Shown here in pieces: positions 14,331 through 33,973 of a stretch of 34,070 bases of DNA. The DNA is from Bacteroidota bacterium (GTDB lineage: Bacteria; Bacteroidota; Ignavibacteria; Kapaibacteriales; UBA2268). The DNA is taken from NCBI GenBank assembly GCA_004322215.1, contig SCSM01000030.1, positions 1 to 34,070 on the forward strand. Direction: 5' to 3'. The first letter of the stretch is position 1. Each line of letters begins with the position of its first letter. A program made the position numbers and the translations under genes. The notes below the pieces were generated by a model. That model saw only the letters and a program-made list of their open reading frames with translations, was not told the DNA's origin and did no database searches.

Positions 14331-14405
14331 ATTGACAATCTCATTTACTTGGTCAACGATTTAACCGACAAGGAGATTGATGTGTTGGAAGGAGAAGGAA
14401 TATGA
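14331..14405 (+). pseudogene. Short C-terminal relic, possibly of a type IIG restriction-methyltransferase
   Basis: An open stretch of 24 codons between TAA (14328-14330) and TGA (14403-14405) encodes IDNLIYLVNDLTDKEIDVLE and then GEGI. It resembles the ending common to Eco57I/TaqI-like type IIG enzymes (LVY.LYGLTEEEI.IVEG). The stop overlaps the DUF2971 start (ATATGA), the arrangement expected if the two once formed an operon. It is far too short for certainty. Confidence 0.2.
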
Positions 14406-17466: not shown

Positions 17467-18270
17467 GTGAACAGACACAATGCCACTCAGCCCAAGAAGA
17501 ATTGGCTGTTGGACTGGGAAAAAGAAGCAATCATAGAGTATGCAGGGGATCATATCGGAGAGGGTTATCGCAGGCTGATATATATGATGCTTGACGAAAA
17601 CGTAGTGGCTGTAAGTCCGTCGTCTGTTTACAGGACATTGAAGAAAGCAGGTATGCTGAATCGTTGGAATAAAGTTAAAACATCGGGTAAAGGCAAAGGA
17701 TACAAGCAGCCCTGCACAGTTCATTCCGAGTGGCATATAGACATCAAGTATGTTAACTTCAAGGGAACGTTTTTGTTCTTAATCAGTATTATTGATGGAT
17801 ATTCCAGGTATATTACGCACCATGAGTTAAGAACACATATGCAGGAATTTGACGTGGAATTGACCGTACAAAAAGCGTTGGAGAAGTATCCGGGCATAAA
17901 GCCGGGATTGATAACTGATAATGGCTCTCAGTTTATATCAAAGGACTTTTCTGAGTATATGCGTCAGGTTGGTTTACAACAAATCCGGACATCTATCGCT
18001 TATCCTCAGTCCAATGGTAAGATTGAGCGTTTTCATCGTACTATACATGATGAGTGTTTGCAGAAAAAATCATTGATTAGCTTAGATGACGCTAAACAAC
18101 AAATATTTAAGTATATTGAATATTATAACAAGAAGAGATTGCATAGTTCTTTGAATTACCTTACACCTAAAGATTACCTGCTTGGCAGAGTTGATGAGAG
18201 ATTATCAGTAAGAGAAAGTAAATTAGAAGTTGCTGCTATGAATAGAATACAGGTTAGAATGGTGGTTTAA
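17467..18270 (+). CDS. IS3-family transposase OrfB (DDE integrase core)
   Basis: The catalytic DDE subunit. D is in HIDIKYV, D in ITDNGSQF, and E in SNGKIERFHRT, with the usual YNKKRLHSSLNYLTP ending. The coordinate given is the GTG at 17467, but the frame is open and family-like from 17290 (HQWGHITGKWVEPDIRDKIV...), so the natural product is probably an OrfAB fusion. OrfB lies in the +1 frame relative to OrfA. An ordinary -1 slip at the A8 run would hit TAA at 17312-17314, whereas loss of one A would fuse them. Either slippage at the A-run or a disabling one-base insertion explains this. Confidence 0.9.
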   Translation: MNRHNATQPKKNWLLDWEKEAIIEYAGDHIGEGYRRLIYMMLDENVVAVSPSSVYRTLKKAGMLNRWNKVKTSGKGKGYKQPCTVHSEWHIDIKYVNFKGTFLFLISIIDGYSRYITHHELRTHMQEFDVELTVQKALEKYPGIKPGLITDNGSQFISKDFSEYMRQVGLQQIRTSIAYPQSNGKIERFHRTIHDECLQKKSLISLDDAKQQIFKYIEYYNKKRLHSSLNYLTPKDYLLGRVDERLSVRESKLEVAAMNRIQVRMVV

Positions 18271-19629: not shown

Positions 19630-22600
19630 ATGAAACAATTATTAAAAATCACAACTGTAGTAATTTATTATTTAACATTTTTGTTATCACATAGTAGCTC
19701 TTTTGGACAATTTTCATCAGACAATGATGGTTCTATTAGTGTTTCACCGATAAATGGGAATTTATCTTATCAGTATCCAATATCAAATTATTCAATTGAT
19801 GGTTACTCTTTTAATGTCTCTATGAATTATTCTGGTAATGTTGTACATACACACTTTCATAAATATGTCAAAGACACTGCTGATACTAATAAAGATGGCT
19901 GGATAAAATTAACTCGTACTCATCCTGCATGGATACTTGGTGTTAATGGATTTGCTATACAGGTTTTGGGACAGAAATTCAGTTATATTTCATGGTACCC
20001 AGGTAATGGGCGAGGAGAAATACCTGATAAACAAAGATATGAAGGAGATGATAATGTATTATGGTTGATTGATGGTTATGATTATTGCAATAGAATGCAT
20101 GAATTAAAAAATCCTGATGATCAAGATGTAATTCATTTACTAAAATCGGACGGCTCGGTTCTTGAATTACGTAACCCAGTCCAAAGAAAGGATGTATCAA
20201 CAGATAATGATCCAACCTTATATTCAGGACATTATTATGAAAATGAAATAAATTCAAATGGTTTTGCGATTGTGAAATTTGATTCAACTTATTGGCCATC
20301 TTATATTAAGAAATTTGCTGATGGCAAATCGGATAGGAATTCATATATACCAAGAGTAATAAAATATTACCCGGGTGATGGTTTGGAATATGTATTTAGA
20401 GAAACTGTGGCACCATACGGTACACGTGAATTTTATCCGTACAGACAAATTATTTATTATCCGATAGATTCAAATGGTATTACAAGGTTACCGGATACAA
20501 TTGATGTCTATGTACCAGGAAGTGCATTGCCAACTATCTTTTATTTAGAAGATATTAATAGTTCAATGGGTAGATTGACATCATTTCTAAGAGCATATCA
20601 TTATGCTAAAGAAGACACAGTGGATGTATCAAGAGGGAGGGCACCAATTATCGAATTCGCAGACCATATAATTAATTATGGGAAAGATGTTTTAACAATA
20701 CAGTCTTTAGGAAGAACATTGAAATTTAATTTGGCTAGAAAAATGTTGAATTATAATGTAGGTATTAGTTGTGGAGATGGTTGTGATGAATATAGTGAAT
20801 ATTTCGATTATGGTTTTGGAAGCGAAGACAACGATAATCTTACATATGAGAGATTATACGGAGATATTTTTAAACTTATTAATAATCCTATAAAGGAATA
20901 TGAAACTTCTTATTGGGATTATTTCAGGTTCGGTGAAATTTCTTTGATAAAAGAAATCATAGACCCTGAAAATCGGAAAACAGAATTTAAATATGGATGT
21001 AAAATGACACATGATTCTGCTTTTGTACTTCCGTATGGTTATTCTCCATGTTATTTTAAATTGCAAGAATTTAGATTAGATTCTATTATTGGACCAACTC
21101 AATATTATTCAATTGAATATCATTCCGGAAACGGTTTGGTTGTTCAGGATGAGATAATAAATTCTGATAATAATTTAGATTATGATTTAATTTCAAGTGT
21201 TAGTCAAATTAAGAAATATGATTACAAGAATTATCAAAAAGGGAATTTGTTAGAAACAATAACGTATGATTTTAATGATAATACAAGTGGTTCTGATACA
21301 ATTTATAAAAGAATAACTTCAGTTGAAATTCTTGATAATTCAGATGATCCAGATGGATTAATGCCACAAAACAATGTTTATGATGGAGTTGATATTACTT
21401 ACTATTTAAAACAATATAAGATTGATCCTTTAAAACCAAATGAAACGCAGTCTTATTACAGTCCTCAACTTCAAATGTTATATCCTGCTAAAATTACACA
21501 ATCAACGTATAATAATAGCTCTGAAACAATTGTCGAAATGGATTCGATTGGATCGAGATTTTATTTTATGCCAATAAGAAAAGAACAAAAGGCAAACGTT
21601 GGAGATGGTTGGGTAACAACATCATATGAAGAATATTTTTATAGGGATTCAATAATAAGATTATTTAATGATAATTCAGAGTTACAAAATGCATTTGGAA
21701 GTGGAATTGTAGAAACAAAAATTAATATATTGAGACCTGATAATAAAGTAGACACATTATATAAAATCATTAATTCATATTTAAATCTTGGTCATCAAGA
21801 AAGATCAATCTCAAGAACTGATTCAATATGGAATAGATATGAAAGCAAAGTAAAAACAGATTCATTTAGAAACCTGGGTATTGATACAACTGTAATCCTA
21901 TATAATACAGTTCAATTCCATGGTAATTTGGATTTGCCACCTATATGGTCATTACCATTAACAATGAAAATTATGGATGGGGAAGATAAATTATTAATAG
22001 GTAAAGTAAATACATACGATACTAATTTTACTTCATCAGGCACACCTTATAGAAGGAGAGGAAGTTTGATAAACGATTCATTAATCGGTAAATATAATAA
22101 TGAAAAATTGCCAATAAATTACTATAATTATACAGGAGGATGGTATCAAAATTTCTTATCAACAATAACAAATGTTATTGGTTCTAAAGTAAGGTTATAT
22201 TATGATTATCATAAAACACCTGCATCTAATTATTTCTATCCAAAAGGGGTAAAACTGATGAATGATAACTCAACATCCCTTAAAAAATTATACATCGAAC
22301 ACAAAGAAATTGAATCACCGATTGCTACTGAATTATATGTTAGAAAATATCACCCTGAAGGATATATTTATTTTGATACATTGACAACATTTTATGAGAA
22401 AACCTATTATGGCTTAAATGGTAGGATTATTGAACCTAATGGTTGGTTATATTCAAGTATTTACGATTATAATGGTAGGGCTAAAAAAATATGGCATCCT
22501 TTTGATTATCCACCAGAAGATAATTGTACTGATAATGACCCATTCGAACCAGGTGGTAGACAAATTAGGATTTATAGTATAGAATCAACAAAAAATGTAA

Positions 22601-23115
22601 CTACAGATACAATTTTTAAATATGACACATCATCAGTGAGATGGGAGATGAGCACCATTCCATATCAGAGTGTATTAGGAGAGCAATATTCCTCAATATC
22701 TCCATATTATAGTGGTTATGGTTCTGAACCGACAAGAGTTGTAAGTAAAGCTGCCATTCCTGTATCATGGGGTTCTGGAACTGAATCAGTATTAATTCCC
22801 GATACAAGTATTGTTTTCCATAAAGACTACGTAACTGTATTTAGGTATATCAAAGATGCAGATGATGCAATTCATAATTGTAATAATTTAGATAGCGCCT
22901 ATTTGAGAATTCAATATATACCTCAAGAAACTGATCAATATCTAATATTAAGAGTTCTTACTAATAAGTTTGGTTTAGAGAAAAGATATGTTTTAGATGC
23001 ACCGCTGATTAAATTGCTTGATAATGTTCCTACCAATCCTCCTACTGAGGGTAATGGATTACCGGAATTGAAAATAGATTCGCACATATATACGATTAGA
23101 CATAGATTATTTTAA
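19630..23115 (+). CDS. RHS/YD-repeat toxin protein, N-terminal half, interrupted by transposon
   Basis: 1,161 residues with a signal peptide (MKQLLKITTVVIYYLTFLLS) and an RHS-type N-terminal region (SVSPINGNLSYQYPISNYSI DGYS, written here as two pieces; MNYSGNVV) followed by long beta-strand-rich sequence of the RHS cocoon type. The native sequence ends at PELKID (23080). The last 11 residues (SHIYTIRHRLF) and the stop come from the left inverted repeat of the transposon at 23081. Joining base 23080 to 27906 continues in frame into the second half (KIDLMPIIDSIHTMNNG) for a total of 2,441 residues. RHS proteins encapsulate and release a C-terminal toxin. The ribosome-binding site GGAG precedes the ATG. 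Confidence 0.85.
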   Translation: MKQLLKITTVVIYYLTFLLSHSSSFGQFSSDNDGSISVSPINGNLSYQYPISNYSIDGYSFNVSMNYSGNVVHTHFHKYVKDTADTNKDGWIKLTRTHPAWILGVNGFAIQVLGQKFSYISWYPGNGRGEIPDKQRYEGDDNVLWLIDGYDYCNRMHELKNPDDQDVIHLLKSDGSVLELRNPVQRKDVSTDNDPTLYSGHYYENEINSNGFAIVKFDSTYWPSYIKKFADGKSDRNSYIPRVIKYYPGDGLEYVFRETVAPYGTREFYPYRQIIYYPIDSNGITRLPDTIDVYVPGSALPTIFYLEDINSSMGRLTSFLRAYHYAKEDTVDVSRGRAPIIEFADHIINYGKDVLTIQSLGRTLKFNLARKMLNYNVGISCGDGCDEYSEYFDYGFGSEDNDNLTYERLYGDIFKLINNPIKEYETSYWDYFRFGEISLIKEIIDPENRKTEFKYGCKMTHDSAFVLPYGYSPCYFKLQEFRLDSIIGPTQYYSIEYHSGNGLVVQDEIINSDNNLDYDLISSVSQIKKYDYKNYQKGNLLETITYDFNDNTSGSDTIYKRITSVEILDNSDDPDGLMPQNNVYDGVDITYYLKQYKIDPLKPNETQSYYSPQLQMLYPAKITQSTYNNSSETIVEMDSIGSRFYFMPIRKEQKANVGDGWVTTSYEEYFYRDSIIRLFNDNSELQNAFGSGIVETKINILRPDNKVDTLYKIINSYLNLGHQERSISRTDSIWNRYESKVKTDSFRNLGIDTTVILYNTVQFHGNLDLPPIWSLPLTMKIMDGEDKLLIGKVNTYDTNFTSSGTPYRRRGSLINDSLIGKYNNEKLPINYYNYTGGWYQNFLSTITNVIGSKVRLYYDYHKTPASNYFYPKGVKLMNDNSTSLKKLYIEHKEIESPIATELYVRKYHPEGYIYFDTLTTFYEKTYYGLNGRIIEPNGWLYSSIYDYNGRAKKIWHPFDYPPEDNCTDNDPFEPGGRQIRIYSIESTKNVTTDTIFKYDTSSVRWEMSTIPYQSVLGEQYSSISPYYSGYGSEPTRVVSKAAIPVSWGSGTESVLIPDTSIVFHKDYVTVFRYIKDADDAIHNCNNLDSAYLRIQYIPQETDQYLILRVLTNKFGLEKRYVLDAPLIKLLDNVPTNPPTEGNGLPELKIDSHIYTIRHRLF
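23073..23080 (+). repeat. 8-bp target-site duplication, left copy
   Basis: AATAGATT immediately left of the transposon. The identical sequence is at 27898-27905 immediately right of it. Eight base pairs is the duplication length known for the IS1595 family. Confidence 0.9.
23081..23104 (+). repeat. Left terminal inverted repeat of the IS1595 element
   Basis: CGCACATATATACGATTAG then ACATA. It matches the complement of 27874-27897 with one mismatch. It supplies the foreign codons and, just beyond, the stop codon of the truncated RHS N-terminal half. Confidence 0.92.
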
Positions 23116-23150
23116 AACTTCATTTATACTTATATAGTATTTTATAATCA

Positions 23151-23166
23151 TGCCAAATTGTCATTT
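23151..23166 (-). promoter_or_regulatory. Subterminal motif, left copy (possible promoter or transposase site)
   Basis: The complement reads AAATGACAATTTGGCA, nearly identical to TAATGACAATTTGACA at 27772-27787 near the other end. Both point outward. Related AATTTGACATAA copies precede cargo genes at 26183 and 26980. The motif contains a -35-like TTGACA/TTGGCA. The function is inferred only. Confidence 0.45.
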
Positions 23167-23249
23167 AATTTATTAGAAAAATAATAAATTACATTGATTG
23201 TCGTTTATAAAAATAAATATAAATATTGACTTTTACAAAAAGGTAGTAT

Positions 23250-23642
23250 ATGAAAAGGGATAAAGAACTAATTAGAGAAATTTTATTATTCACAGAAAGT
23301 CAAAAACCACTTTTTTCTCTTAGTTTCAACAATAAATATGATAGTGATTGCTCATATTTTCCGGGATATAAAAATGGAGATGTATCTCAGCATTACAAAT
23401 TATTAATTGATGATGAATATTTAAATGGAAAATATTTAGAGAATGAGGGGGGAATTATTTGTTCAATTATAGCTATTGAAATAAAAATGAAAGGATATAA
23501 TTTATTAGATTCAATCAGAGATACTGGTATTTGGTCAGAAGTTAAAAACGGTTTGGGTATAGCTGGTGAATCATGGAATCTGGAATTAATTGCTAAACTT
23601 GGAACAAAAATAATCGCAAATAAAATTGGCTTATTAAAATAA
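23250..23642 (+). CDS. Transposon cargo: DUF2513 protein
   Basis: 130 residues. MKRDKELIREILLFTESQKP, GYKNGDVSQHYKLLIDDEYL and LLDSIRDTGIWSEVKN follow the DUF2513 pattern (MKRD.DLIR.IL; GY....V.YH..LL....L; FLD.IR...IW..VK), a small winged-helix-like family common on phages and islands. The family's function is unknown; a DNA-binding role is a guess from the fold. It is the first gene inside the left end of the element. Confidence 0.75.
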   Translation: MKRDKELIREILLFTESQKPLFSLSFNNKYDSDCSYFPGYKNGDVSQHYKLLIDDEYLNGKYLENEGGIICSIIAIEIKMKGYNLLDSIRDTGIWSEVKNGLGIAGESWNLELIAKLGTKIIANKIGLLK

Positions 23643-23653
23643 TCGGAATCCTT

Positions 23654-23941
23654 ATGGAGAAAAATGAAACTCATAATTGGAGAGAAATAGCAAGTAGAAT
23701 TATAACTGAATTGAGTTTAGCACTTATTGTTACCTTTACTATTACTGAACCTTATTTTGAAGATGTACCAAACAATAAAGATAATTACTATAAGGTTGTT
23801 ACAATTCCATTAAAGGGAGAGCATAATGAATCTGGTAATACTTCTTATGAAAAATTAGAAAAATCAACAGATGAATTGAGTACCCCAATGATGAATATTT
23901 CTAATAAATCTCAGAATAAAATAGTATTTAAAGCATATTGA
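23654..23941 (+). CDS. Transposon cargo: small putative membrane protein
   Basis: 95 residues. One hydrophobic segment (ELSLALIVTFTIT, about residues 19-31) is followed by a polar Asn/Lys/Ser-rich tail. No family was recognised. It starts 11 bp after the DUF2513 gene, suggesting cotranscription. Confidence 0.5.
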   Translation: MEKNETHNWREIASRIITELSLALIVTFTITEPYFEDVPNNKDNYYKVVTIPLKGEHNESGNTSYEKLEKSTDELSTPMMNISNKSQNKIVFKAY

Positions 23942-23945
23942 TATC

Positions 23946-24162
23946 TTATTCTTTTGTGAATGGAGTAATTGTATAAGTATATCCATATCGCCATCCTGCA
24001 CCGCCAGTACCTCCTCTATAATCATTTTTCATTGAGTGCATTAATTGTTCCCAAGCACGAGCCTGTAATTCTGTTGTGAATGTTTTTTGTTCCCAGTCAG
24101 TAGGGATTACCATGTTCCTGTTTTCGTCTAACTGGGTCATCAGTTAATCCAACATATTTCAT
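23946..24162 (-). pseudogene. Transposon cargo: mini GIY-YIG protein, frameshifted
   Basis: From ATG 24162, with AGGAGT just upstream, the frame reads MKYVGLTDDPVRRKQEHGNP and then stops. One base out of register it continues TDWEQKTFTTELQARAWEQL and DYRGGTGGAGWRYGYTYTIT to the stop at 23946. Together they make a ~72-residue protein with the YVG...R...HG...E order of the GIY-YIG nuclease superfamily. One extra base in the CCC near 24104 explains the break. The YVGLTDDP..R..EHGNP core is strongly family-like. It is inactive unless recoded or a sequencing error. Confidence 0.75.
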
Positions 24163-24270
24163 ATTTACTCCTAATATTAAAATCAAACATTGATAATCAA
24201 AATTATATTTATAAATAATTATTTCCAATTTGTAATACTATTTATTTTTCAGTAATTTAATAGTCTTTAT

Positions 24271-24295
24271 TAGCACTCTTAATAACAGAGTGCTA
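24271..24295. promoter_or_regulatory. 8-bp hairpin in divergent intergenic region
   Basis: TAGCACTC and GAGTGCTA pair around a nine-base loop. It lies between the minus-strand mini GIY-YIG gene and the plus-strand gene at 24490, upstream of both, so an operator or attenuator is more likely than a terminator. The rest of 24163-24489 is AT-rich without a gene. Confidence 0.35.
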
Positions 24296-24489
24296 TTTAT
24301 ATATAATTATTAAATAAGAAATTTTGCATTTTTTTTTCACGAGCTATAGTTAACAATATAATAATCATTTATTAGTCTTAATTATAAAATATGGTATAAA
24401 AATTGTATAAAAATTTTTTTTTATTATTATTGTTTTTATTATTTTTTTTATTTTTATATTTGTTGTCTAATTTTAAAAATATATTTATT

Positions 24490-24753
24490 ATGAATATGAG
24501 AATTATCAATAATGCCACCTTGAAAGAATCATATAAAAATTATCTTTTAGGTATAGGTTCTATAATAAATTTAGTAGGAAATTTACCAGAAAATTTTATC
24601 AAATTTACTATAAAAAAGGTTGATGCAGAAGTTGCACGACCTAATGATATAATAATTGGTAAATCTTTATGGCTCGCTCCTATAGATATAACTAAGTATT
24701 ATAAAAATGAAGAAAAGACCAAAGAAGAAAAAGAAGTTACAATCGAATCATAA
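24490..24753 (+). CDS. Transposon cargo: hypothetical protein
   Basis: 87 residues from ATG 24490 (MNMRIINNATLKESYKNYLL). Then GIGSIINLVGNLPENFIKFT and VDAEVARPNDIIIGKSLW. No named domain was recognised. An upstream TTG at 24403 would add 29 residues encoded by a T-rich tract (FFLLLLFLLFFLFLYLL), which looks artefactual. The last 47 bp overlap the next gene. Confidence 0.55.
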   Translation: MNMRIINNATLKESYKNYLLGIGSIINLVGNLPENFIKFTIKKVDAEVARPNDIIIGKSLWLAPIDITKYYKNEEKTKEEKEVTIES

Positions 24754-25195
24754 TATTGCAAAGAATCCAGTAGCAATACAAGAACCAGACAAGCAAAATG
24801 GGCATAATACAATTACAAGAAATGGTCAGGAAGATAAAAATACTGAAATTATAGCAGCTGCTTATTCTTTTTCTGGTCCATTACCTCCCCCTGAAATTCT
24901 TAAAAAATATAATGAAACTATTCCAGATGGAGCTAATAGGATAATGATTATGACAGAAAACCAAATAAAATATAGTTATAATCAAATGAAAAGAGGTCAA
25001 GTATTTGCTTTTATTATAACCATATTAATAATTATCATTGGTGGCTATTTAATACACGAAGAACGTGGATGGTATGGGTTTTCAATTATTATAGCTGATA
25101 TAATAATGCTTATAACGGCTTTTCTTAAATCAGGAAATATAAAAACAGAACCTGCAACTATCAAAGAAAATGAAGAAAATAATAATTCGGAATAA
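24707..25195 (+). CDS. Transposon cargo: DUF2335 membrane protein
   Basis: 162 residues. A lysine-rich start (KKRPKKKKKLQ) is followed by FSGPLPPPEILKKYNETIPD and GANRIMIMTENQIKYSYNQM, the hallmark of the DUF2335 predicted membrane proteins. Two hydrophobic helices follow (FAFIITILIIIIGGYLI and FSIIIADIIMLITAFL). The role is unknown; relatives are frequent in accessory regions. It overlaps the upstream gene by 47 bp and is convergent with the transposase gene. Confidence 0.75.
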   Translation: MKKRPKKKKKLQSNHNIAKNPVAIQEPDKQNGHNTITRNGQEDKNTEIIAAAYSFSGPLPPPEILKKYNETIPDGANRIMIMTENQIKYSYNQMKRGQVFAFIITILIIIIGGYLIHEERGWYGFSIIIADIIMLITAFLKSGNIKTEPATIKENEENNNSE

Positions 25196-25203
25196 AAACT
25201 TAT

Positions 25204-26169
25204 TTATAATTTCTTTTTTTTATATACAATTTTCTTTACATCACCTTTGGGTTTCAAATTGACGAGGCATTTATCCTCTGCTACGGCATTTTTTATTGTT
25301 TGACTAAAGCCTATATCTGCCCGTCTCCGCTTGCTATATTTATAGCTATACTCTGCAAGATAGAAGGGTAAATACTTCTTTGATATTGCTCTGAAATTGC
25401 CTTTAATCCCATTTTTTAATAAACTCCAGAATCCTTCAATGGTATTAGTATGAATCACACCTCTTGCAAATTCTTTTGTATGGTCTATTGTCAAATGCTC
25501 TACAACTTCATCAAATTTTTTGTAAGAGGAAAATTCATCAGTTATGAGTATTGCACCATCTTCTTTGACGTATCTCCGGAACATTGCTAATAAATTTCGT
25601 GTAGTCAACTTTTCAATTACTTTTGTTGCAACTTGTCCGCTTTGCCTTGCAACAATTCCAACGACAGGAACTTTACGAGTACCTCGACCTCTTTTTTCGT
25701 AAACACGACTTAATATCGGAACATTATCAGGATATTTAATTACAGGTTTACGTGGCTTACCGCCCATATACGCCTCGTCCATTTCGACAATGCCATCTAA
25801 GAAATCACCTTCATCAAGCATAGCACAACGAACTTTCATAGCATTGAACCATGCAGATTTTTGTGTAATTCCTAATTGTCTGCCTAATTCTTTTGAGGAG
25901 ACACCCATCTTTGAATTAATCATTAGGGCAATAAGTTGAAACCAAATCGGCAAAGGCATATTAGTATCCTCAAAAACAGTATCAACTAATACACTAAAAG
26001 ACCTGCCACAATTATTACATTGATAGCGAAACTCATTTTTCCTGTCTGCGATATGTTCCTGTTCATTACAATAGGGACAGGTAGGAAGTTTCCCCCATCT
26101 AATTTTTTCAAGATGTTCAATACATTTTCTTTGAGTATTGAATTTCTTATGCAGTTCAATAATATTCAT
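25204..26169 (-). CDS. IS1595-family (ISXO2-like) transposase
   Basis: 321 residues. An N-terminal zinc ribbon with two CxxC pairs (CPYCNEQ; CNNCGRSF) is followed by an HTH-like part (SSKELGRQLGITQKSAW). The ISXO2-like DDE core has EMDEAYMGGK, ILITDEFSSYK and HTNTIEGFWSLLKNGIKGNF. Length and domain order are standard and intact. It is the only transposase inside the 23081-27897 element, and the 8-bp flanking duplication fits this family, so it is the enzyme responsible for the insertion. Confidence 0.93.
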   Translation of the reverse strand: MNIIELHKKFNTQRKCIEHLEKIRWGKLPTCPYCNEQEHIADRKNEFRYQCNNCGRSFSVLVDTVFEDTNMPLPIWFQLIALMINSKMGVSSKELGRQLGITQKSAWFNAMKVRCAMLDEGDFLDGIVEMDEAYMGGKPRKPVIKYPDNVPILSRVYEKRGRGTRKVPVVGIVARQSGQVATKVIEKLTTRNLLAMFRRYVKEDGAILITDEFSSYKKFDEVVEHLTIDHTKEFARGVIHTNTIEGFWSLLKNGIKGNFRAISKKYLPFYLAEYSYKYSKRRRADIGFSQTIKNAVAEDKCLVNLKPKGDVKKIVYKKKKL

Positions 26170-26182
26170 AAAATCACTTTTT

Positions 26183-26196
26183 ATAATTTGACATAA
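26183..26196 (+). promoter_or_regulatory. ATAATTTGACATAA motif before cargo gene
   Basis: Identical to 26980-26993 and related to 27772-27787 and the left subterminal copy. It contains TTGACA, with TATAAA about 15 bases later. It probably serves the gene starting at 26244, which has a GTGGAGG ribosome-binding site. Confidence 0.45.
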
Positions 26197-26243
26197 TAGT
26201 TATTTTCGTATAAATTATCATTTCTTCAATTTGTGGAGGTTTT

Positions 26244-26738
26244 ATGCCTAAAATAATTAATTATGGTTTAGCTGGAGCAAATGCCCCATTACCTCATCAA
26301 ATAGCCGTCAAAGAATTGTTATGCTTTATTGACCGTGTTCTTAAAAGGAAACATCCCTTATATGATGTTGTTTCTGAAATGAATGTTCGTGTTTGTACTG
26401 GTGATAAAGAATATTTTGAAAAAAATTCCGATATTGTTATTTGGAAAAAATCAAAAACTCAAATTGATGAAATAACAGAACCAATAACAATAATCGAAAT
26501 AACACGAGATTCATTTCCCATTGAACTTAATAACGATAATAAAGATACAAGAAAAATAATATCATATTTTGATAATTTTCCATCATTGAAAGAATGTCTC
26601 TTATATAATTATCCCGATAAAAATTTAAAAACTAATACAATCAAGTTTATAAGAACTAAGAATAATGAAATAATTAGACAAAAAGGCAAACCCTATCTTA
26701 GTAAAGGGAAAATTAATCTTCGTCCTTATCTGAAATAA
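26244..26738 (+). CDS. Transposon cargo: PD-(D/E)XK/Uma2-like protein
   Basis: 164 residues. HQIAVKELLCFIDRVLKRKH followed by NVRVCTGDKEYFEKNSDIVI and ITIIEITR resembles the Uma2/PD-(D/E)XK nuclease core. D in NSDIVIW and E in IIEIT would be the metal ligands, but the usual lysine is not clear. A nuclease role is therefore only inferred. It has a strong GGAGG ribosome-binding site. The 3' end overlaps a convergent small gene by 26 bp. Confidence 0.5.
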   Translation: MPKIINYGLAGANAPLPHQIAVKELLCFIDRVLKRKHPLYDVVSEMNVRVCTGDKEYFEKNSDIVIWKKSKTQIDEITEPITIIEITRDSFPIELNNDNKDTRKIISYFDNFPSLKECLLYNYPDKNLKTNTIKFIRTKNNEIIRQKGKPYLSKGKINLRPYLK

Positions 26739-26967
26739 CAGATTGTGCGAATTTCAGACTATCAAGGTTTAATTGATAATCAGTATATTCAGGGATAAAA
26801 TCAACATCTCTTGTCCCCTCTATTTCAAATCCATCAATAACTCCATATTCGGCTATGTCCCCTTCAGGCAATTCTACCATTACCGAAACTAACCTTGCCT
26901 GAATTGTTTTTCCATAATTATTTCCAATTCCTCTTAATTCTACATTTAGACATGTATTGTTACTCAT
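26713..26967 (-). CDS. Transposon cargo: small acidic hypothetical protein
   Basis: 84 residues (MSNNTCLNVELRGIGNNYGK ... SVISDKDED), very acidic toward the C-terminus. No family was recognised. AAAGG lies upstream of the ATG. It is divergent from the gene at 27012, with 44 bp between them that contain the TTGACA motif. Confidence 0.5.
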   Translation of the reverse strand: MSNNTCLNVELRGIGNNYGKTIQARLVSVMVELPEGDIAEYGVIDGFEIEGTRDVDFIPEYTDYQLNLDSLKFAQSVISDKDED

Positions 26968-26979
26968 ATTTTAACCTTT

Positions 26980-26993
26980 ATAATTTGACATAA
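26980..26993 (+). promoter_or_regulatory. ATAATTTGACATAA motif, second internal copy
   Basis: Exact copy of 26183-26196, 18 bp before the start of the gene at 27012. The distance is short for a promoter of that gene, so a protein-binding site is equally possible. Confidence 0.4.
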
Positions 26994-27011
26994 ATTTGTT
27001 AAATTAGTTAT

Positions 27012-27410
27012 ATGAAAAAACACTTAAAAAAATATGCCCTCAATCTCGGCTCATATAGATATAAATATGTAGCTAAAACCATTAATAGAGTAATTAAACC
27101 AAACAAAATTGGTAATTATGCTTTGGGCAAAATTATCATAGAAAATCAAAGACATATTTTTAGAGTTTATTACATAGGACGTTCTGATACAGATTTAAAA
27201 ACTGAAATAGCAAAATATTTAAATGAAAAAACTGAATATCATTTTTTTAAATTCGTTTATCATACCACCGAACAACAAGCATACGAACATGAATGCAAAA
27301 ATTTTCATCTCTTAAAAAAGAGAAAAGAGAAAAAATATTATAATAAAATACATCCAGCAAAACCCCAAAATTCTAAAATCTGTTGTCCTATATGTAAATG
27401 CACTAATTAA
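27012..27410 (+). CDS. Transposon cargo: GIY-YIG-like protein with C-terminal Cys cluster
   Basis: 132 residues. GNYALGKIII (G-x-Y), FRVYYIGRSD (YIG-R) and QQAYEHECKNFHLL (E) follow GIY-YIG order at about residues 33-100. It ends CCPICKC, a likely half zinc ribbon. Some elements are divergent, so nuclease activity is uncertain. Its stop is two bases from the convergent gene at 27412. Confidence 0.5.
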   Translation: MKKHLKKYALNLGSYRYKYVAKTINRVIKPNKIGNYALGKIIIENQRHIFRVYYIGRSDTDLKTEIAKYLNEKTEYHFFKFVYHTTEQQAYEHECKNFHLLKKRKEKKYYNKIHPAKPQNSKICCPICKCTN

Positions 27411-27411
27411 A

Positions 27412-27636
27412 TTAGCAGTTATCAATATGATTTGCTGCTATCATATTATTAAAAAGAGTATTAGCACAATTATAAATTTGAAATAATTCAAAATTTCTCC
27501 ATTTATCTTCACATTTATCAAATTCAATTCCTGCTTTCATAGACAAAGCATCTAAAAATTCAATATTTTCAAAATCAATTTTAAACTTTTTTTCAATAAG
27601 TGAAATTTCGGTTTTAACTTTATTTTTATTTGACAT
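27412..27636 (-). CDS. Transposon cargo: small hypothetical protein
   Basis: 74 residues from ATG 27636, chosen because AAGGGGAG lies just upstream and the protein then begins MSNKNKVKTEISLIEKKFKI. The longer frame from 27744 adds a hydrophobic stretch with no ribosome-binding site. No family was recognised. Confidence 0.5.
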   Translation of the reverse strand: MSNKNKVKTEISLIEKKFKIDFENIEFLDALSMKAGIEFDKCEDKWRNFELFQIYNCANTLFNNMIAANHIDNC

Positions 27637-27771
27637 TTTGTTTTCTCCCCTTAATTTTATATTTTTTATTAAAAATTTATATATTAATTTTACTGAATAT
27701 AAAATTATGGGGAGGTGATTTATTATGATTGATAATTTCAACATATTTCCTCCTTAAAATAAATAAATCAT

Positions 27772-27787
27772 TAATGACAATTTGACA
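27772..27787 (+). promoter_or_regulatory. Subterminal motif, right copy
   Basis: TAATGACAATTTGACA mirrors AAATGACAATTTGGCA on the opposite strand at 23151-23166. Both lie within about 70-125 bp of an element end and point outward. Confidence 0.45.
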
Positions 27788-27811
27788 TATTGATATAAAA
27801 ATAAAACAATA

Positions 27812-27834
27812 TTTATCAGAAAATTTCTGATAAA
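27812..27834. repeat. Perfect 23-base palindrome near right transposon end
   Basis: TTTATCAGAAA and TTTCTGATAAA flank a single central A. It could be a strong hairpin or a dyad operator. No counterpart was seen at the left end. Confidence 0.6.
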
Positions 27835-27859
27835 TACTGCATATTTCATAAAATACAGG

Positions 27860-27884
27860 GATTAGGCAATTTTTATGCCTAATC
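27860..27884. repeat. 8-bp hairpin overlapping the right terminal repeat
   Basis: GATTAGGC and GCCTAATC pair around AATTTTTAT, so the inner part of the right inverted repeat can fold on itself. The loop contains the first bases of the ATG that appears to start the downstream RHS half. Confidence 0.55.
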
Positions 27885-27897
27885 GTATATATGTGCG
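27874..27897 (-). repeat. Right terminal inverted repeat of the IS1595 element
   Basis: Its complement reads CGCACATATATACGATTAG then GCATA, one mismatch from the left end. The ATG at 27875 lies inside it. Confidence 0.92.
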
Positions 27898-30800
27898 AAT
27901 AGATTTAATGCCCATTATAGATAGTATACATACAATGAATAATGGGGATACACTTGTTTTTAATTTAGAGTCTGTTACAATTGGCGGCGCTATTAATATT
28001 GTAGATGGTGCAGAAGATTTGGGACCAACAATTATCGTTGTATGTGAAGGATGTACTCATGATGATTACACTTTTGCTTATAATTATAATGATTCGACGA
28101 GGACGACAAATTATTTTGCAAAGATTGATGATGGTTTGCATACTACAACTAAAGGTTGGACAAAAACTTATGATATACTTGATGGACGATATACAGAATC
28201 TATTGGTTTTTTTGGAGCCGATAATAGATTCTTGAAATTGGATACTAAAATAGGTACACCTCCATCTCCCTCAAGTATTGATTCAATCATTATAAAATTA
28301 TCCGGAGCAGGAAAAACAATCCAGATGAAAGATCAAGATGGATTTATATCAAAAATTATATGGAGAGATGGAATACCGAATACATTTACTTCCCCGGATA
28401 ATACAAATATCTTAGCTAATAAAAAGGTTCTTAGTCCAAGTACTTTTACCAATTTACTTAACGTAACTGTTGATGAATATTTCGGTGTTTGTTATGAAAG
28501 TGTCTCGATTGATGAAGCTGGGATTAAAGATGCTTCATATTATGATGCATTCGGAAATTTAAGGAGAACAATTTATGATATTGATGATAAAAGAGTGACT
28601 ACCAATTACACTTATGATAAATCAGGAAATCTTAAGTATGTAATACACCCAAATAATGATACAACAAAATATTGGTATGATGATTTTGGCAGAATGAAGT
28701 ATAAGTTTAACAAAGATGTTGATTATATATCCAATGCGTATAATAAAATCGGACAAATAAGATTCAGCCAGACTAAAGAGCAGGTTGACAGTTGTAAACT
28801 TGCTTATTATGAATATGATGACCTCGGTAGAATTACTATCGTGGGTGAAGCCAAAGTGGATACTAATGGATTATTATTGCATGAACCCCAAATTATTAAT
28901 GATACTTTATGCTTATTTAATAGATTAACTGAAATACTTGATCCTGATATACTCCATTACACTTATTTTAATGACCCGAATTTTGGTGATGAAGGTTTAT
29001 TAACCGCAAATATGACTTTGTTCGCGAATTACACAAGACAAGTGCCAACTTTTTGGAATTCATATAATATATCTGAATGTATACCTTATTATTCAGATAT
29101 ACCTTATGATACTTGTCCTGTCCCTCCTTTTATTGTTCATTCTGTTCAAAATTATGAACCATTGGATACATTTGCATCAATAATGGATTTTGAAAATATT
29201 GCTAAGTTTCCAGATTTTGTAAGAACTCTAATTAGTTATGAAAACCTGCCACCAAATGTCGGTTCGATTTGGAGTAATATTCCTCCGGATTCAAACTGGC
29301 ACAATATGGCTCCCTACGACACATTAAGAAATTTAAAAGGCAGGCAAGTTGCTGCAGCATATCGTGAACATAGCGGTGAACCATTTCACTATGTAGTTTT
29401 CAGCTATGATCCCCGTGGTAGAATTGAAGCAATAATGAGATATACTGAAAATATTGGATATGATGCAGTATATTATACTTATAATTCTATGAATCAAATA
29501 TTATCGGTTATGGCATCAGACCCGGTAAGAACTTATAAAACATGGTACGGTTATGACAATAATGGACGTCTCGATAGTGTCTGGACTAAACTGGGTACTG
29601 TAGGTTCAGGTTTAGGTATTAATATTAGCCCAAAATTTCCGGATACAACTTTATTCCCATTACCCAGACCCGATACAGCAGATATAGTTTATAAATACAA
29701 TAAACGTGGAATGATTGAACAAATTGAGTACTTACCTGTAAATGTTGTACAGTTTTTGAATTATAGTTCACGGGGATGGCTCGATTCGATGATTGCATTG
29801 AGAAATTATGATACTATATTCAATCAAGTGTTAGAACGAAATAATACCGGTAATATTACAAAACAAAAATCAAGACAATACAATCAAAATGAATTCGTTC
29901 AGGAGTATAATTATGACAGGTTGGAACGGCTTCAAAACTGGACTCACGGAAGCCAAACTGATAATTTTAGTTATGACATCATGGGAAACAGGTTAGGACA
30001 TAGAAAAATAGATTCGGTACAATTTAATTATTCAACAAGTTTACCGAATAGATTGTTGACTACTCTTAATCAAACAACAAATAAATTAACTACTTACAAT
30101 TATAACTCAATTGGAGCTGTAAAAATGATTGATTCGTGGAATGGTACAGATTCAATTAAAGAAGCAATAGAGTATACCATGGAAGGATTACCAAAAAAAT
30201 ATTTGAAATGGGAGTTCAGTAATCAATTTCAAACTATATCAGAACATGAAGAATGTACCCAAAGCCCAACTTTCGACCCAGTCAAATGGGATTGGCGATA
30301 CAGGTATTGTATTTTGGGCGGAAGAGAACAAAAGCGGCTCTACTACTCACCTCATGGGGACAGCTGTTTCAGTTATACACATCCCTGGGCTTATTACCTG
30401 CGAGGTGCCGCCGGCGAACAGCTTGCTGTATATTATGGCAGGCAAACTGCCGCCGATACATGCAATGATACTGGAAGAAGGGTTTATTTGTATCCTCATT
30501 CGTATCTCACTAATGGGGGTGAACTTGTTACTTTACCGGAGCCTATTACACAAAATCCTGATGGTTTCAGAAAGGAGTTCTCGATCGGAGACCACCTCGG
30601 CTCAATAAGGACTATTGTCTCAATTAGTAATGGAAATGTTGCAGTAAAAGGATACGATTATCAACCTTATGGTGAGCTAATTAGCAGCTCATCCGGCGAC
30701 GAGGCAAGGATAGGATTTACAGCGCAGGAGAGGGACAGAGAATCATCATTCTTCCTTATGGGAGCAAGGCATTACGACCCTGAAATAGGAAGGTTTTTAA

Positions 30801-31780
30801 GCACAGACCCGCTAATGGAATTACAACCTGACCAGTCACCATATTCGTATGCACATAATAGCCCGTTGATACTAATTGATCCGACAGGATTATCTGCCCA
30901 AACAGCTGGACCACAAGCGAGTGGCGGTTATGCTGTGGCAGTAGATAATAGTATGCAATATTTTTTTGAAGGTTGGTGGGATTTTCTGTGGAATTCTTAT
31001 ATTGCACATAATAGAGAAAGTGGAGGAGGTGGTGGTAATGGTGGGTTTACCCCTGGTGCTCGTGGAGGAGGTAGTGGTTTCTTTAGAGGAGGAAGTGGAA
31101 CCGGTTCACCATACTATAAAAATATGTATCCAAAAGGAACTAAATATCCCAATCCTTATGAATCGAGTAAGCAATTTGCATGGAATGAACTGGTTCAAGG
31201 TTCGCCAAAGTTGTCACAATATAATCCATCATTTTTAGAGGGGGTAAGAAAATATGGTGAAAGTTCTACTTGGTGGAATCCAGTGGGGGCTTACATAAAT
31301 ACTTTCGATGATATAAGTGTTTCTGTAACGAATCTTACAAGCAGAATTACTATGTCCGACAAACCTGCATTGCATATGGACGGCACATTTGCTACAAATC
31401 AGGAAATACGGGAAAGCTCTGTAAATACGATGATATTTTTCGCTTTTCTTGCTGGACCTAAAATATTTGGAAATTTAAAGGGAATTATACCTCAAAGAAC
31501 TTATTCAATTTATCAAGGTATTGATAAAGAGGGTATTGTAAGGTATATTGGTCTGACTGGAAGAGACCCTAAAATTAGGTTTATGGAACAATTAGGTTCA
31601 AAAACAGAAAAAGCTTTTTTACGATATAATGTTGTTTTAACTAAACCTACTTATACAGAAGGTAGAATTTGGGAACAAATATTTATTAATAAATATGGTC
31701 TTCAAAAGAACGGAGGACCTCTTTTAAATAAATATAATTCAATAAGTCCGAAGTATTGGTATCAATATGGAATCAAATAA
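27875..31780 (+). CDS. RHS toxin C-terminal half with RHS core and GIY-YIG nuclease tip
   Basis: 1,301 residues as read from ATG 27875, but the first ten or so (MPNRIYVRID) come from the transposon end; native sequence resumes at LMPIIDSIH. YD repeats are clear (YTYDKSGNLKYVI, YWYDDFGRMKY, YYEYDDLGRIT). The RHS-associated core follows (GDHLGSIRTIVS, YDYQPYGE, FTAQERDRES, GARHYDPEIGRFLSTDP, DPTGL) at about residues 904-1003. After a Gly-rich linker and a hydrophobic stretch, the final ~95 residues form a GIY-YIG nuclease: TYSIYQGIDKEGIVRYIGLT, DPKIRF, EGRIWEQIF and LLNKYNSISPKYW. It has no signal peptide of its own. It was one gene with 19630-23080 before the insertion. Confidence 0.9.
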   Translation: MPNRIYVRIDLMPIIDSIHTMNNGDTLVFNLESVTIGGAINIVDGAEDLGPTIIVVCEGCTHDDYTFAYNYNDSTRTTNYFAKIDDGLHTTTKGWTKTYDILDGRYTESIGFFGADNRFLKLDTKIGTPPSPSSIDSIIIKLSGAGKTIQMKDQDGFISKIIWRDGIPNTFTSPDNTNILANKKVLSPSTFTNLLNVTVDEYFGVCYESVSIDEAGIKDASYYDAFGNLRRTIYDIDDKRVTTNYTYDKSGNLKYVIHPNNDTTKYWYDDFGRMKYKFNKDVDYISNAYNKIGQIRFSQTKEQVDSCKLAYYEYDDLGRITIVGEAKVDTNGLLLHEPQIINDTLCLFNRLTEILDPDILHYTYFNDPNFGDEGLLTANMTLFANYTRQVPTFWNSYNISECIPYYSDIPYDTCPVPPFIVHSVQNYEPLDTFASIMDFENIAKFPDFVRTLISYENLPPNVGSIWSNIPPDSNWHNMAPYDTLRNLKGRQVAAAYREHSGEPFHYVVFSYDPRGRIEAIMRYTENIGYDAVYYTYNSMNQILSVMASDPVRTYKTWYGYDNNGRLDSVWTKLGTVGSGLGINISPKFPDTTLFPLPRPDTADIVYKYNKRGMIEQIEYLPVNVVQFLNYSSRGWLDSMIALRNYDTIFNQVLERNNTGNITKQKSRQYNQNEFVQEYNYDRLERLQNWTHGSQTDNFSYDIMGNRLGHRKIDSVQFNYSTSLPNRLLTTLNQTTNKLTTYNYNSIGAVKMIDSWNGTDSIKEAIEYTMEGLPKKYLKWEFSNQFQTISEHEECTQSPTFDPVKWDWRYRYCILGGREQKRLYYSPHGDSCFSYTHPWAYYLRGAAGEQLAVYYGRQTAADTCNDTGRRVYLYPHSYLTNGGELVTLPEPITQNPDGFRKEFSIGDHLGSIRTIVSISNGNVAVKGYDYQPYGELISSSSGDEARIGFTAQERDRESSFFLMGARHYDPEIGRFLSTDPLMELQPDQSPYSYAHNSPLILIDPTGLSAQTAGPQASGGYAVAVDNSMQYFFEGWWDFLWNSYIAHNRESGGGGGNGGFTPGARGGGSGFFRGGSGTGSPYYKNMYPKGTKYPNPYESSKQFAWNELVQGSPKLSQYNPSFLEGVRKYGESSTWWNPVGAYINTFDDISVSVTNLTSRITMSDKPALHMDGTFATNQEIRESSVNTMIFFAFLAGPKIFGNLKGIIPQRTYSIYQGIDKEGIVRYIGLTGRDPKIRFMEQLGSKTEKAFLRYNVVLTKPTYTEGRIWEQIFINKYGLQKNGGPLLNKYNSISPKYWYQYGIK
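27898..27905 (+). repeat. 8-bp target-site duplication, right copy
   Basis: AATAGATT, identical to 23073-23080. Confidence 0.9.
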
Positions 31781-31782
31781 AT

Positions 31783-32271
31783 ATGTCAAAAATCATAACA
31801 AAAATAGGTGATATTTTTTCTGTTCAAATTGATGATAATAATAAAAAGTATATGCAGTATATTATCAATGATATGACTCAGCTCAATAGTGATGTCATTA
31901 GAGCTTTTAAAACAGTTTATCAAATTGATGATAATTTTGATTTAGCTGATATATTAAAGGGTGAGGTAGAGTTTTACTCTCATTGTGTCTTAGATATTGG
32001 AATTAAATATGGATATTGGAAAAAGGTTGGCAATATAGTTGATGTTGGAAAAATAAACCACATACTTTTCAGAGATAGTAGTGATTACGGTAATCCTGCA
32101 ATAAAAGTATCAAATAATTGGTGGGTATGGAAGATAAATGACGATCAAAAATATATAGGGAAATTACGGGGTAAATATCTAAGTGCCGAAATTGGAATTG
32201 TTGTAACTCCTGAAGATATAGTCACAAGACTTAGAACAGGAAAGTATGACTTTGTTTATCCGGGATACTAG
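31783..32271 (+). CDS. Imm26-like immunity protein for the RHS GIY-YIG toxin
   Basis: 162 residues from ATG 31783, two bases after the toxin stop, so it is almost certainly translationally coupled. The N-terminus SKIITKIGDIFSVQIDD then YMQYI fits the Imm26 family start (KIGDVF.....G.Y.Y). The position directly after the toxin tip is the classic place for the cognate immunity gene in polymorphic toxin loci. It is expected to be cytoplasmic and to neutralise the nuclease in producer cells. The family call is by motif only. Confidence 0.7.
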   Translation: MSKIITKIGDIFSVQIDDNNKKYMQYIINDMTQLNSDVIRAFKTVYQIDDNFDLADILKGEVEFYSHCVLDIGIKYGYWKKVGNIVDVGKINHILFRDSSDYGNPAIKVSNNWWVWKINDDQKYIGKLRGKYLSAEIGIVVTPEDIVTRLRTGKYDFVYPGY

Positions 32272-32459: not shown

Positions 32460-33973
32460 TTATTTAAATAATTGCAGTAATACTTTATGTTCATCGGTTA
32501 AGCCAATTAATTTTGATTGTTGTATCTTAGAATCCGGTAATTTATAGTCAAGCGCATATATGCTTTGAGTTAGTTCTATGGCTTTTTTCGCACTAATGCC
32601 CTTTCTGTTTTTCTTTAACACTCTTTCGAGTTCTTTATAAATCATATAAGCAGTAAATGATATACTGATATGAGCCTGTATCCTTCCTCTTAATCTATGG
32701 TAAACGGGTCTGATCTTTAAATCAGTTTTAGATATTCTAAATGCTTTCTCAATATGCCATAAGTGTTGATAATTTTCTACCACTTGCCCAGGAGTCAACT
32801 TTGAGTTTGTTACATAACCTTTCAAGCCATCCCAGCTATTGTCTGATTCGAACTTATCGTAATCTATCTTGATCTCAATATTACCAATTAATTTTAGATA
32901 TTTATTATATCCTCGATTGTTGATATGACTTTTTGATAATTTACCTTTCTTGATTTTTTCTTCAAGCTTTTTTATTCCACGTTCCCTATTATGCTTATCT
33001 TTCTTTGCTCTTTTCTCAGAATAAGAAACTATCAATCTTGTGTGCCGGCCCTTTTTGATTTCTGCTAATTCATTGTCAGACAATTTCAGTTTTAATATCC
33101 TATCCTTTATATCTTTGCTCTCATTCTTTATTCTGCCACCTAAAATGCAAGTATAGCCTGCTTCCGTGAGTTGTGTGATGTTTTCGTTTGATAATAAACC
33201 AGCATCTGCAATCACTATCGGTTTTGAAAGTTTGAACTTCGTTTCAAAATCCATCAGTACTGGTATTCATGTATGGTCTTAGTATATATTGCCTTCAAAT
33301 ATTTCGTATCCTATTGGATATCCGTTCATACCAACAAGCAATCCTAAATAGATTTGTGGATTCTGATGCTTCCCATCTTTTGAAAATCCCGTTTTACGCA
33401 AATCATCCTCATCTTCTGATTCAAAATATATTGTGGTCATATCATAAAATACTATTCCGATTTCTCCTAAAACCTTTTTACTGTATTCATATGATATTTG
33501 TTCAAGCTCTGCTTTATACTTCCTATCTAGCCTGTCTAAAAACCTGTATATCTCATCTTTTTGCACCTCAACTCCTGATACCTTCTGAGATAATCTATTG
33601 TCTTGAGTTTACTGCCAGGATAGACTAATCGTGTTATTACTAAATGCCTAAATAAATCTTTCCCTATATTATTATAACCTATTTGGTCGAATATCCTGCC
33701 CAATACTAACTCAGGTCCGACTACGCGTATCTGAAAAGTGTCTGTATTATTGATGTATTGTTGGATGTTCTTGTCGTTAGTTGTCTGATAATTTAAAGTT
33801 GGTTGTCCTATTATATCAGGAATTAATTTGTGTGCTTCGCGATAGAAATAATCTATTTTTCCCGGATCTTTTGAACTCCCAAGGGTCTTAACTACATTGT
33901 AGTGACCTTTGCTTTTGTCAATTATCTGGATACTTACACTTCCGCTTCTGTTATGTTTTTTGCGTACAAACAT
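32460..33973 (-). pseudogene. IS1634-like transposase, decayed
   Basis: Three pieces of one ~505-residue DDE transposase. The N-terminal part is 33973-33536 (MFVRKKHNRSGSVSIQIIDK). The middle has VFYDMTTIYFES. The C-terminal part has IVIADAGLLS and YQHLWHIEKAFRISKTDLKI RPVYHRLRGR (two adjoining stretches), giving the D, D and E positions. A one-base deletion near 33574 breaks DYLRRYQ / GVEVQKDEIYRFL. Two in-frame stops, TAA (33279-33281) and TGA (33267-33269), interrupt GNIY-DHT-IPVLMDFE. Terminal repeats could not be set confidently. The element interrupts the second immunity gene. Confidence 0.8.

What the first reader, a model, noticed from the sequence alone, without database searches (positions are those of the whole stretch)
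23073..27905. A cargo-bearing IS1595-family transposon splits an RHS toxin gene with base-perfect boundaries
Seen directly: 24-bp terminal inverted repeats (one mismatch) at 23081-23104 and 27874-27897, the 8-bp duplication AATAGATT on both sides, and an intact IS1595/ISXO2-type transposase inside. Removing 23081-27905 joins ...PELKID to LMPIIDSIHTMNNG in frame; 3,451 + 3,875 bases = 7,326, exactly 2,442 codons. The apparent stop of the 5' half and the apparent ATG of the 3' half are transposon sequence. IS1595 elements are known to make 8-bp duplications and sometimes carry passengers. At ~4.8 kb with roughly nine passengers this is a large example, possibly undescribed.
Basis: partly seen in the sequence, partly recalled or inferred. 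Interest (0 to 1): 0.92.

Follow-up and report, generated by a model that had tools for sequence, protein, structure and literature searches.

The report
Cargo-carrying jumping gene splitting RHS gene
A 4.8-kb jumping DNA element of a known family (IS1595), loaded with about eight extra small genes, has landed inside a large bacterial weapon-type (RHS) gene and cut it in two; relatives with the uncut gene and a sister element with different cargo confirm it, so it is a clean new example of a known kind.

Summary
Window 23081-27897 (4,817 bp) is bounded by 24-bp inverted repeats (23 of 24) and an 8-bp direct repeat (AATAGATT), and encodes an intact IS1595-family transposase; shuffled controls never exceed 17 of 24. 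A same-genus genome has the RHS gene uncut at this point, and ten loci of other relatives hold both halves in one frame of 2,193-2,469 codons. A second copy in the genome (5,804 bp; transposase 92% identical; perfect ends; TTAATTTT duplication) has mostly different cargo, and its site is empty in 3 of 3 same-genus genomes. Smaller relatives are 1.9-2.7 kb; a 1.6-kb one without transposase splits an hsdS-like gene. Best reading: a transporter IS (tIS) of the IS1595 family with exchangeable cargo. Window cargo includes DUF2513 and DUF2335 proteins, a conserved 164-aa/84-aa pair and a broken GIY-YIG-like fragment, but no recognised defence gene; relatives carry AbiV and a probable RosmerTA pair. 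IS1595-family tIS are published (MTnSag1, tISCpe8: 1.7-2.0 kb, one resistance gene). New member of a known kind; the multi-gene, partly defence-like, swapped cargo is the interesting part.

The parts
23073..23080 (.). left copy of the 8-bp target duplication AATAGATT
   Evidence: both copies map to one octamer of the uncut relative (6 of 8 bases shared)
23081..23104 (+). left terminal inverted repeat
   Evidence: 23 of 24 with the right end
23250..23642 (+). passenger, 130 aa, DUF2513
   Evidence: PF10711 1.5e-15; phrog_585 1e-18
23654..23941 (+). passenger ORF, 95 aa, no family match above cut-off
23946..24228 (-). broken passenger: two fragments in different frames (43-aa and 64-aa ORFs) matching one intact 70-aa GIY-YIG-like protein of the C20 sister element
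   Evidence: BLASTP 95% over 20 aa and 62% over 52 aa; the intact relative's GIY-YIG match is below cut-off, E 0.1
24403..24753 (+). doubtful ORF, 116 aa (TTG start, low-complexity N-terminus)
24707..25195 (+). passenger, 162 aa, DUF2335 membrane protein
   Evidence: PF10097 6.5e-9; phrog_3996 'membrane protein' 3.4e-27
25204..26169 (-). IS1595-family DDE transposase, 321 aa, intact
   Evidence: PF12762, PF12760; NF033547; alignment with five relatives
26244..26738 (+). conserved accessory ORF, 164 aa, divergent from the transposase; at E <= 0.001 homologues found only in two other elements of this lineage among 19 genomes
26713..26967 (-). conserved accessory ORF, 84 aa, 3' end overlapping the 164-aa gene; same arrangement in the two other elements
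27012..27410 (+). passenger, 132 aa; GIY-YIG-like by eye only (no family match; fold test uninformative)
27412..27744 (-). passenger ORF, 110 aa, unknown
27874..27897 (-). right terminal inverted repeat; contains the apparent ATG (27875) of the 3' RHS ORF
27898..27905 (.). right copy of the 8-bp target duplication
19630..23080 (+). 5' part of the interrupted RHS gene
   Evidence: a 550-aa piece matches uncut relatives
27906..31780 (+). 3' part of the interrupted RHS gene with RHS core
   Evidence: TIGR03696 72.3 bits, cut-off 32.5; uncut relatives
31756..32271 (+). Imm26-type immunity gene directly after the RHS gene
   Evidence: PF15428 23.6 bits, cut-off 23.3

Best explanation
A transporter insertion sequence (tIS) of the IS1595 family. 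Its DDE transposase recognises the 24-bp ends and inserted the whole 4,817-bp unit into an AT-rich octamer of an RHS gene, duplicating 8 bp and splitting the gene (shown by anatomy and by an uncut relative). The lineage keeps the transposase and ends while passenger genes on both sides are exchanged between copies (shown by the C20 sister). Passengers are most likely phage- or competition-related genes carried for the benefit of host or element, plus a conserved 164-aa/84-aa pair that may serve the element itself (inferred). Insertion presumably abolished the full-length RHS product (inferred).
For: Ends, duplication and control. Transposase family. RHS uncut at this point in same-genus G002:C105, where the separately aligned left and right flanks fall on one octamer and lie in one open frame. 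Sister element C20:528605-534408, 5,804 bp, ends 24/24, TSD TTAATTTT, transposase 92% identical, with empty site in 3 of 3 same-genus genomes searched. Further lineage members with exact 8-bp duplications: C24 2,044 bp, G002:C58 1,892 bp, C6 1,601 bp without transposase ORF. Cargo of relatives: AbiV PF18728 3.7e-19 in C24; RmrA 3.8e-66 in C20. IS1595-family tIS with 25-bp ends, 8-bp repeats and AT-rich targets are published (PMC5704250, passages).
Against: Transposition was not observed. In the window no passenger matched a PADLOC model (0 of 8 ORFs tested: seven intact plus the doubtful one), so a defence role is inferred from relatives only. One member (G015:C33) lacks a clean duplication (6 of 8) and one (G015:C157) has a right end but no paired left end in its short contig. 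The sibling octamer shares 6 of 8 bases with the duplication, as expected at about 81% flank identity but not an identical empty site. The uncut relative's contig begins within the gene, and its first 249 bases read in another frame (115-codon open frame), so that relative's own gene has a frame break upstream or an assembly error at the contig end.
Confidence: 0.93

Rival explanations
1. Two separate RHS-like genes with an ordinary gene cluster between them, the end repeats being chance.
For: The two halves are each open frames with plausible start and stop.
Against: Uncut relatives; 23/24 ends plus exact duplication against a maximum of 17/24 in 100 shuffles; same ends on a second element.
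Confidence: 0.01
2. A short IS1595 insertion that later gained its passengers in place (nested insertions or recombination at this locus), so the 4.8-kb unit never moved as one.
For: Cargo differs from the C20 sister while the transposase region is 86% identical in DNA; the six passengers measured have G+C 0.20-0.34 against 0.35 for the transposase.
Against: The same kinds of genes (GIY-YIG-like fragment left of the transposase, 164-aa/84-aa pair right of it) sit in the same order in the C20 copy at another locus with its own duplication, so at least this cargo travelled inside the ends.
Confidence: 0.1
3. The 164-aa/84-aa pair and the GIY-YIG-like genes are part of the transposition machinery rather than passengers.
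For: The pair lies next to the transposase in 3 elements; the 164-aa protein was found nowhere else in 19 chosen genomes, in 72,556 plasmid records or in viral contigs.
Against: Three lineage members with transposase (C24, G002:C58, G015:C33) have no copy of the 164-aa gene at E <= 0.001 yet have ends, two of them with exact duplications; G015:C33 has a 209-aa ORF with a faint match to the C20 form (19%, E 0.003, composition correction off), so that one is open. Structure prediction of the 164-aa protein failed (pLDDT 37).
Confidence: 0.15

Closest known systems
tISCpe8 and MTnSag1 (tISSag10), IS1595-family transporter IS of Firmicutes
   Same: IS1595 DDE transposase, 25-bp ends, 8-bp target duplication, AT-rich targets, passenger gene inside the ends (PMC5704250, passages read).
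   Different: Those are 1.7-2.0 kb with one lincosamide-resistance gene; this one is 4.8 kb with seven to nine passengers on both sides of the transposase, no resistance gene recognised among its Pfam/NCBIfam matches, in a Bacteroidota-type genome.
IS1595 family in general (Siguier et al. 2009, seen only as a reference in PMC3129680, PMC7986276 and PMC5704250; the paper itself not read)
   Same: Family profile NF033547 far above cut-off; 'transporter IS' is credited to that paper in PMC3129680 (passage).
   Different: Outside this bacterial family the listed transposases are 36-42% identical in the class sample, at most 40% in the 15 of 429 plasmid records listed and 51% at best in viral contigs.
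RosmerTA (RmrT/RmrA) and AbiV phage-defence genes
   Same: Sister elements C20 and C24 carry an RmrA-type XRE-ImmA/IrrE gene after a 216-aa ORF, and an AbiV gene (RosmerTA described in PMC10440598, passages).
   Different: Not in the window element; the 216-aa putative partner matches no model.

Membership tests
IS1595 family | IS1595/ISXO2-type DDE transposase | tested here: met
   PF12762 3.7e-31, NF033547 170.7 bits vs 75
IS1595 family | N-terminal zinc ribbon | tested here: met
   PF12760 33.3 bits vs 25.4
IS1595 family | terminal inverted repeats of about 25 bp | tested here: met
   24 bp, 23 matching
IS1595 family | 8-bp target duplication | tested here: met
   AATAGATT twice; 5 of 6 lineage members with both ends seen have exact 8-bp repeats
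IS1595 family | catalytic acidic residues intact | tested here: inconclusive
   D131, D211 and E245 are invariant in six relatives; their assignment as the catalytic triad is recalled
transporter IS (tIS) | passenger genes unrelated to transposition inside the ends | tested here: met
   cargo differs between copies
transporter IS (tIS) | moves as a unit | not testable with these tools
   indirect only: empty sites in relatives
RHS gene | RHS repeat-associated core domain | tested here: met
   TIGR03696 72.3 bits vs 32.5
phage-defence gene carrier | known defence gene among the window's passengers | tested here: not met
   0 of 8 window ORFs match PADLOC at E <= 1; the broken fragment was not scanned

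The most novel reading that the evidence does not exclude
A Bacteroidota-type lineage of IS1595 transporter IS serves as a shuttle for interchangeable anti-phage and competition cassettes (AbiV, RosmerTA, GIY-YIG-like, phage-moron membrane proteins), keeping its ends, transposase and, in the larger members, a new 164-aa/84-aa accessory pair of unknown fold that helps the element itself.
Probability: 0.3. Interest if true: 0.55.

Novelty: new member of a known kind. Interest (0 to 1): 0.36.

Why it matters
It gives a base-resolved tIS lineage (two large copies, several small ones, one copy without transposase, empty sites in relatives) in which cargo exchange between closely related elements can be followed. 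It also shows small DDE elements, not only islands and phages, carrying AbiV and RosmerTA-type genes, and warns that split RHS and hsdS annotations can be insertion scars.

Tried and rejected
Defence models on window passengers: 0 of 8 ORFs matched. Structure of the 164-aa protein from a two-sequence alignment: mean pLDDT 37, not used; a PD-(D/E)XK-like idea from its motif is by eye only. Structure of the 132-aa protein: pLDDT 57; Foldseek against PDB best E 0.17, with no GIY-YIG nuclease among the 50 rows listed of 481, so the GIY-YIG label stays unproven. HHalign between single passengers: no pair of 14 sequences above 30% probability; the test is weak, for it recovers the known 164-aa/C20 pair at 98% but gives 0.3% to the two DUF2513-type proteins. 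Solved-structure sequence searches of the 164-aa profile and the C20 110-aa protein: best E 0.31 and 1. The 164-aa family in viral contigs and plasmids: none. C20's 110-aa ORF has a faint PADLOC match, PDC-S14, E 0.0015, not relied on. Literature searches for IS1595 with defence systems or GIY-YIG: listings only, no title that describes this. Two paper look-ups were not held, the second being the tISCpe8 paper; Siguier 2009 was not looked up by id and not read. A RosmerTA search with wrong spelling returned nothing useful.
Full report
Check of the observation. The element is at 23081-27897 (4,817 bp), G+C 0.27 against 0.34 for the window. Its ends match at 23 of 24 positions and are flanked by AATAGATT on both sides. 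Asking for an exact 8-bp direct repeat plus 24-bp inverted ends across the transposase, the real sequence scores 23 of 24; 100 first-order Markov shuffles reach 17 at most (mean of bests 15.3). The transposase is an intact 321-aa IS1595-family protein.

The interrupted gene. Instead: lengths 3,451 and 3,875 sum to 2,442 codons, and the 3' ORF is in the frame this requires. A 550-aa piece from the 5' side and a 500-aa piece from the 3' side were searched separately in 54 genomes: 12 of 54 and 14 of 54 have matches, own genome included. Same-genus G002 contig 105 holds both (77% identity at 222-824, 88% at 831-2330) in one open frame of 1,516 codons with 6 bases between them, which equals the 4 + 2 bases left over in the window. 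DNA alignment of each 400-base flank puts both duplication copies on one octamer of that relative (81% identity each side); that octamer shares 6 of 8 bases with the duplication. Against a perfect picture: this contig begins inside the gene, and its first 249 bases match in a different frame, so the relative has its own upstream frame break or a contig-end error; the insertion point itself is unaffected. Ten other loci appear in both searches with the same single open frame of 2,193-2,469 codons (G060:C80, G060:C7, G062:C45, G021:C31, G061:C70, G006:C35, G012:C126, G068:C129, G064:C86, G068:C74), at 22-40% identity. So the RHS gene was whole at this point before insertion. The 3' part has the RHS core (TIGR03696) and is followed by an Imm26-type gene just above Pfam's cut-off.

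Other copies. The own genome has a second large member at contig 20, 528605-534408 (5,804 bp): perfect ends, TTAATTTT on both sides, transposase 92% identical. Its site is empty in 3 of 3 same-genus genomes: left and right flank matches lie within six bases of each other in each. Contig 24 has a 2,044-bp member (TSD TTATTTTA, ends 21 of 24, transposase 65%). Contig 6 has a 1,601-bp member without a transposase ORF (TSD ATATTCTT, ends 22 of 24), lying between two ORFs that both resemble type I specificity subunits, one above Pfam's cut-off and one just below (20.4 bits vs 22), beside an N6 methylase. G002 contig 58 has a 1,892-bp member (TSD TAATTTTT, ends 24 of 24, transposase 65%). G015 contig 33 has a 2,713-bp member (transposase 72%) whose flanking octamers agree at only 6 of 8. 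G015 contig 157 (by length and end position the same record as L017, a Bacteroidetes MAG contig) has a transposase at 77% and a right end, but no paired left end was found in the contig.

Distribution. At E <= 1e-60, 3 of 100 genomes, own included, have the transposase. At E <= 1e-50, 11 of 391 genomes of the class do, but outside the genus the matches are 36-42% identical. A profile at E <= 1e-80 finds only the own genome among 395 of the phylum. The best-ranked of 429 plasmid records with a match is 40% identical, and the best of 93 viral-contig relatives 51%. The close lineage thus appears narrow in these collections.

Cargo. The window has DUF2513 (also phrog_585), a DUF2335 membrane protein (also phrog_3996), a broken gene whose 70-aa intact relative in C20 is GIY-YIG-like below cut-off, a 164-aa gene and an 84-aa gene with overlapping 3' ends, and ORFs of 95, 132 and 110 aa without families. 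None of eight window ORFs matches a PADLOC defence model. The 164-aa/84-aa pair recurs in the same order in C20 (35% and 40-43%) and in G015:C157 (56% and about 31%); the 164-aa protein was not found elsewhere in 19 chosen genomes, in plasmids or in viral contigs. C20 also carries an XRE-ImmA/IrrE protein matching PADLOC RmrA at 3.8e-66, overlapped by a 216-aa ORF with no model match; RmrA antitoxins pair with diverse RmrT toxins in RosmerTA (PMC10440598, passages), so a RosmerTA pair is likely but not shown. C24 carries an AbiV protein (PF18728, 69.8 bits vs 27.1), for which PADLOC gave only a weak unrelated match. G015:C33 carries a sub-threshold GIY-YIG protein (E 0.0021). C6 carries a sub-threshold DUF2513-type protein (E 0.0011). 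Between the window and C20, DNA similarity is confined to the ends, the transposase region and short stretches: the cargo is largely replaced or highly diverged.

Is cargo unusual in this family? Of 80 viral-contig loci I examined 40; 16 of 40 show ends of at least 18 of 22 with an exact 8-bp repeat (two of them look like one element), sizes 1.5-4.6 kb. The threshold of 18 was chosen after seeing what look like chance pairs at 15-16; no shuffled control was run for these. All 13 that I opened (13 of 16) have at least one non-transposase ORF of 50 aa or more. Of 10 cargo proteins scanned from six elements, six passed Pfam cut-offs: P63C twice, DUF4760, PemK toxin, KilA-N and a C5 DNA methylase. 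So passengers, including restriction- and toxin-type genes, are common in these IS1595 relatives.

Known context. Papers define tIS as IS carrying passenger genes (PMC7986276, PMC9330008, PMC3129680; passages). The IS1595-family elements MTnSag1 and tISCpe8 have 25-bp ends, 8-bp duplications, AT-rich targets, sizes 1.7-2.0 kb, one lincosamide-resistance gene, and a circular form seen for MTnSag1 (PMC5704250, passages). All five exact duplications here are 7-8 of 8 A/T. The window element therefore meets the family's features and differs in size, number of passengers and kind of cargo. I searched the paper library for IS1595 with passenger genes, transporter IS, defence systems, tISCpe8 and GIY-YIG and saw no description of this element in the listings; most subscription papers are not held.

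Mechanism, shown and inferred. Shown: boundaries, duplication, uncut relative, intact transposase, sister copy with the same ends and other cargo. Inferred: transposition by this transposase, possibly through a circular copy as for MTnSag1; loss of full-length RHS; benefit of cargo to host or element; accessory role of the 164-aa/84-aa pair.

Noticed in passing
L009 3606-9409 (own genome contig 20): Sister element with a probable RosmerTA pair (216-aa ORF plus RmrA-type protein) and the conserved 164/84-aa-type pair.
   Followed up: partly
L026 7551-9594 (own genome contig 24): 2,044-bp IS1595 element whose single clear passenger is an AbiV abortive-infection protein.
   Followed up: partly
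L027 8579-10179 (own genome contig 6): 1.6-kb element with the same type of ends and an 8-bp duplication but no transposase; it separates two hsdS-like ORFs and contains a further internal end-like sequence at 8992.
   Followed up: partly
window 26187, 26984, 27781; L009 7640, 8512, 9193: Recurrent TTGACATA-type words, several of them upstream of passengers, like sigma-70 -35 boxes, unusual for a Bacteroidota-type host (recalled).
   Followed up: no
L097 6038-8594: Viral-contig IS1595 element carrying a C5 DNA methylase and a neighbour with a sub-threshold BsaWI-type match, perhaps a mobile restriction-modification unit.
   Followed up: partly
window 17467-18270 and 32460-33254: Two further transposase genes (integrase-core type and DDE_Tnp_1) near the RHS locus, suggesting a mobile-element-rich region.
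   Followed up: partly
window 14402-15283: DUF2971 protein in the same region, outside the element.
   Followed up: no
window 27875-31780: The right inverted repeat supplies an in-frame ATG to the 3' RHS part; whether it is expressed is unknown.
   Followed up: no
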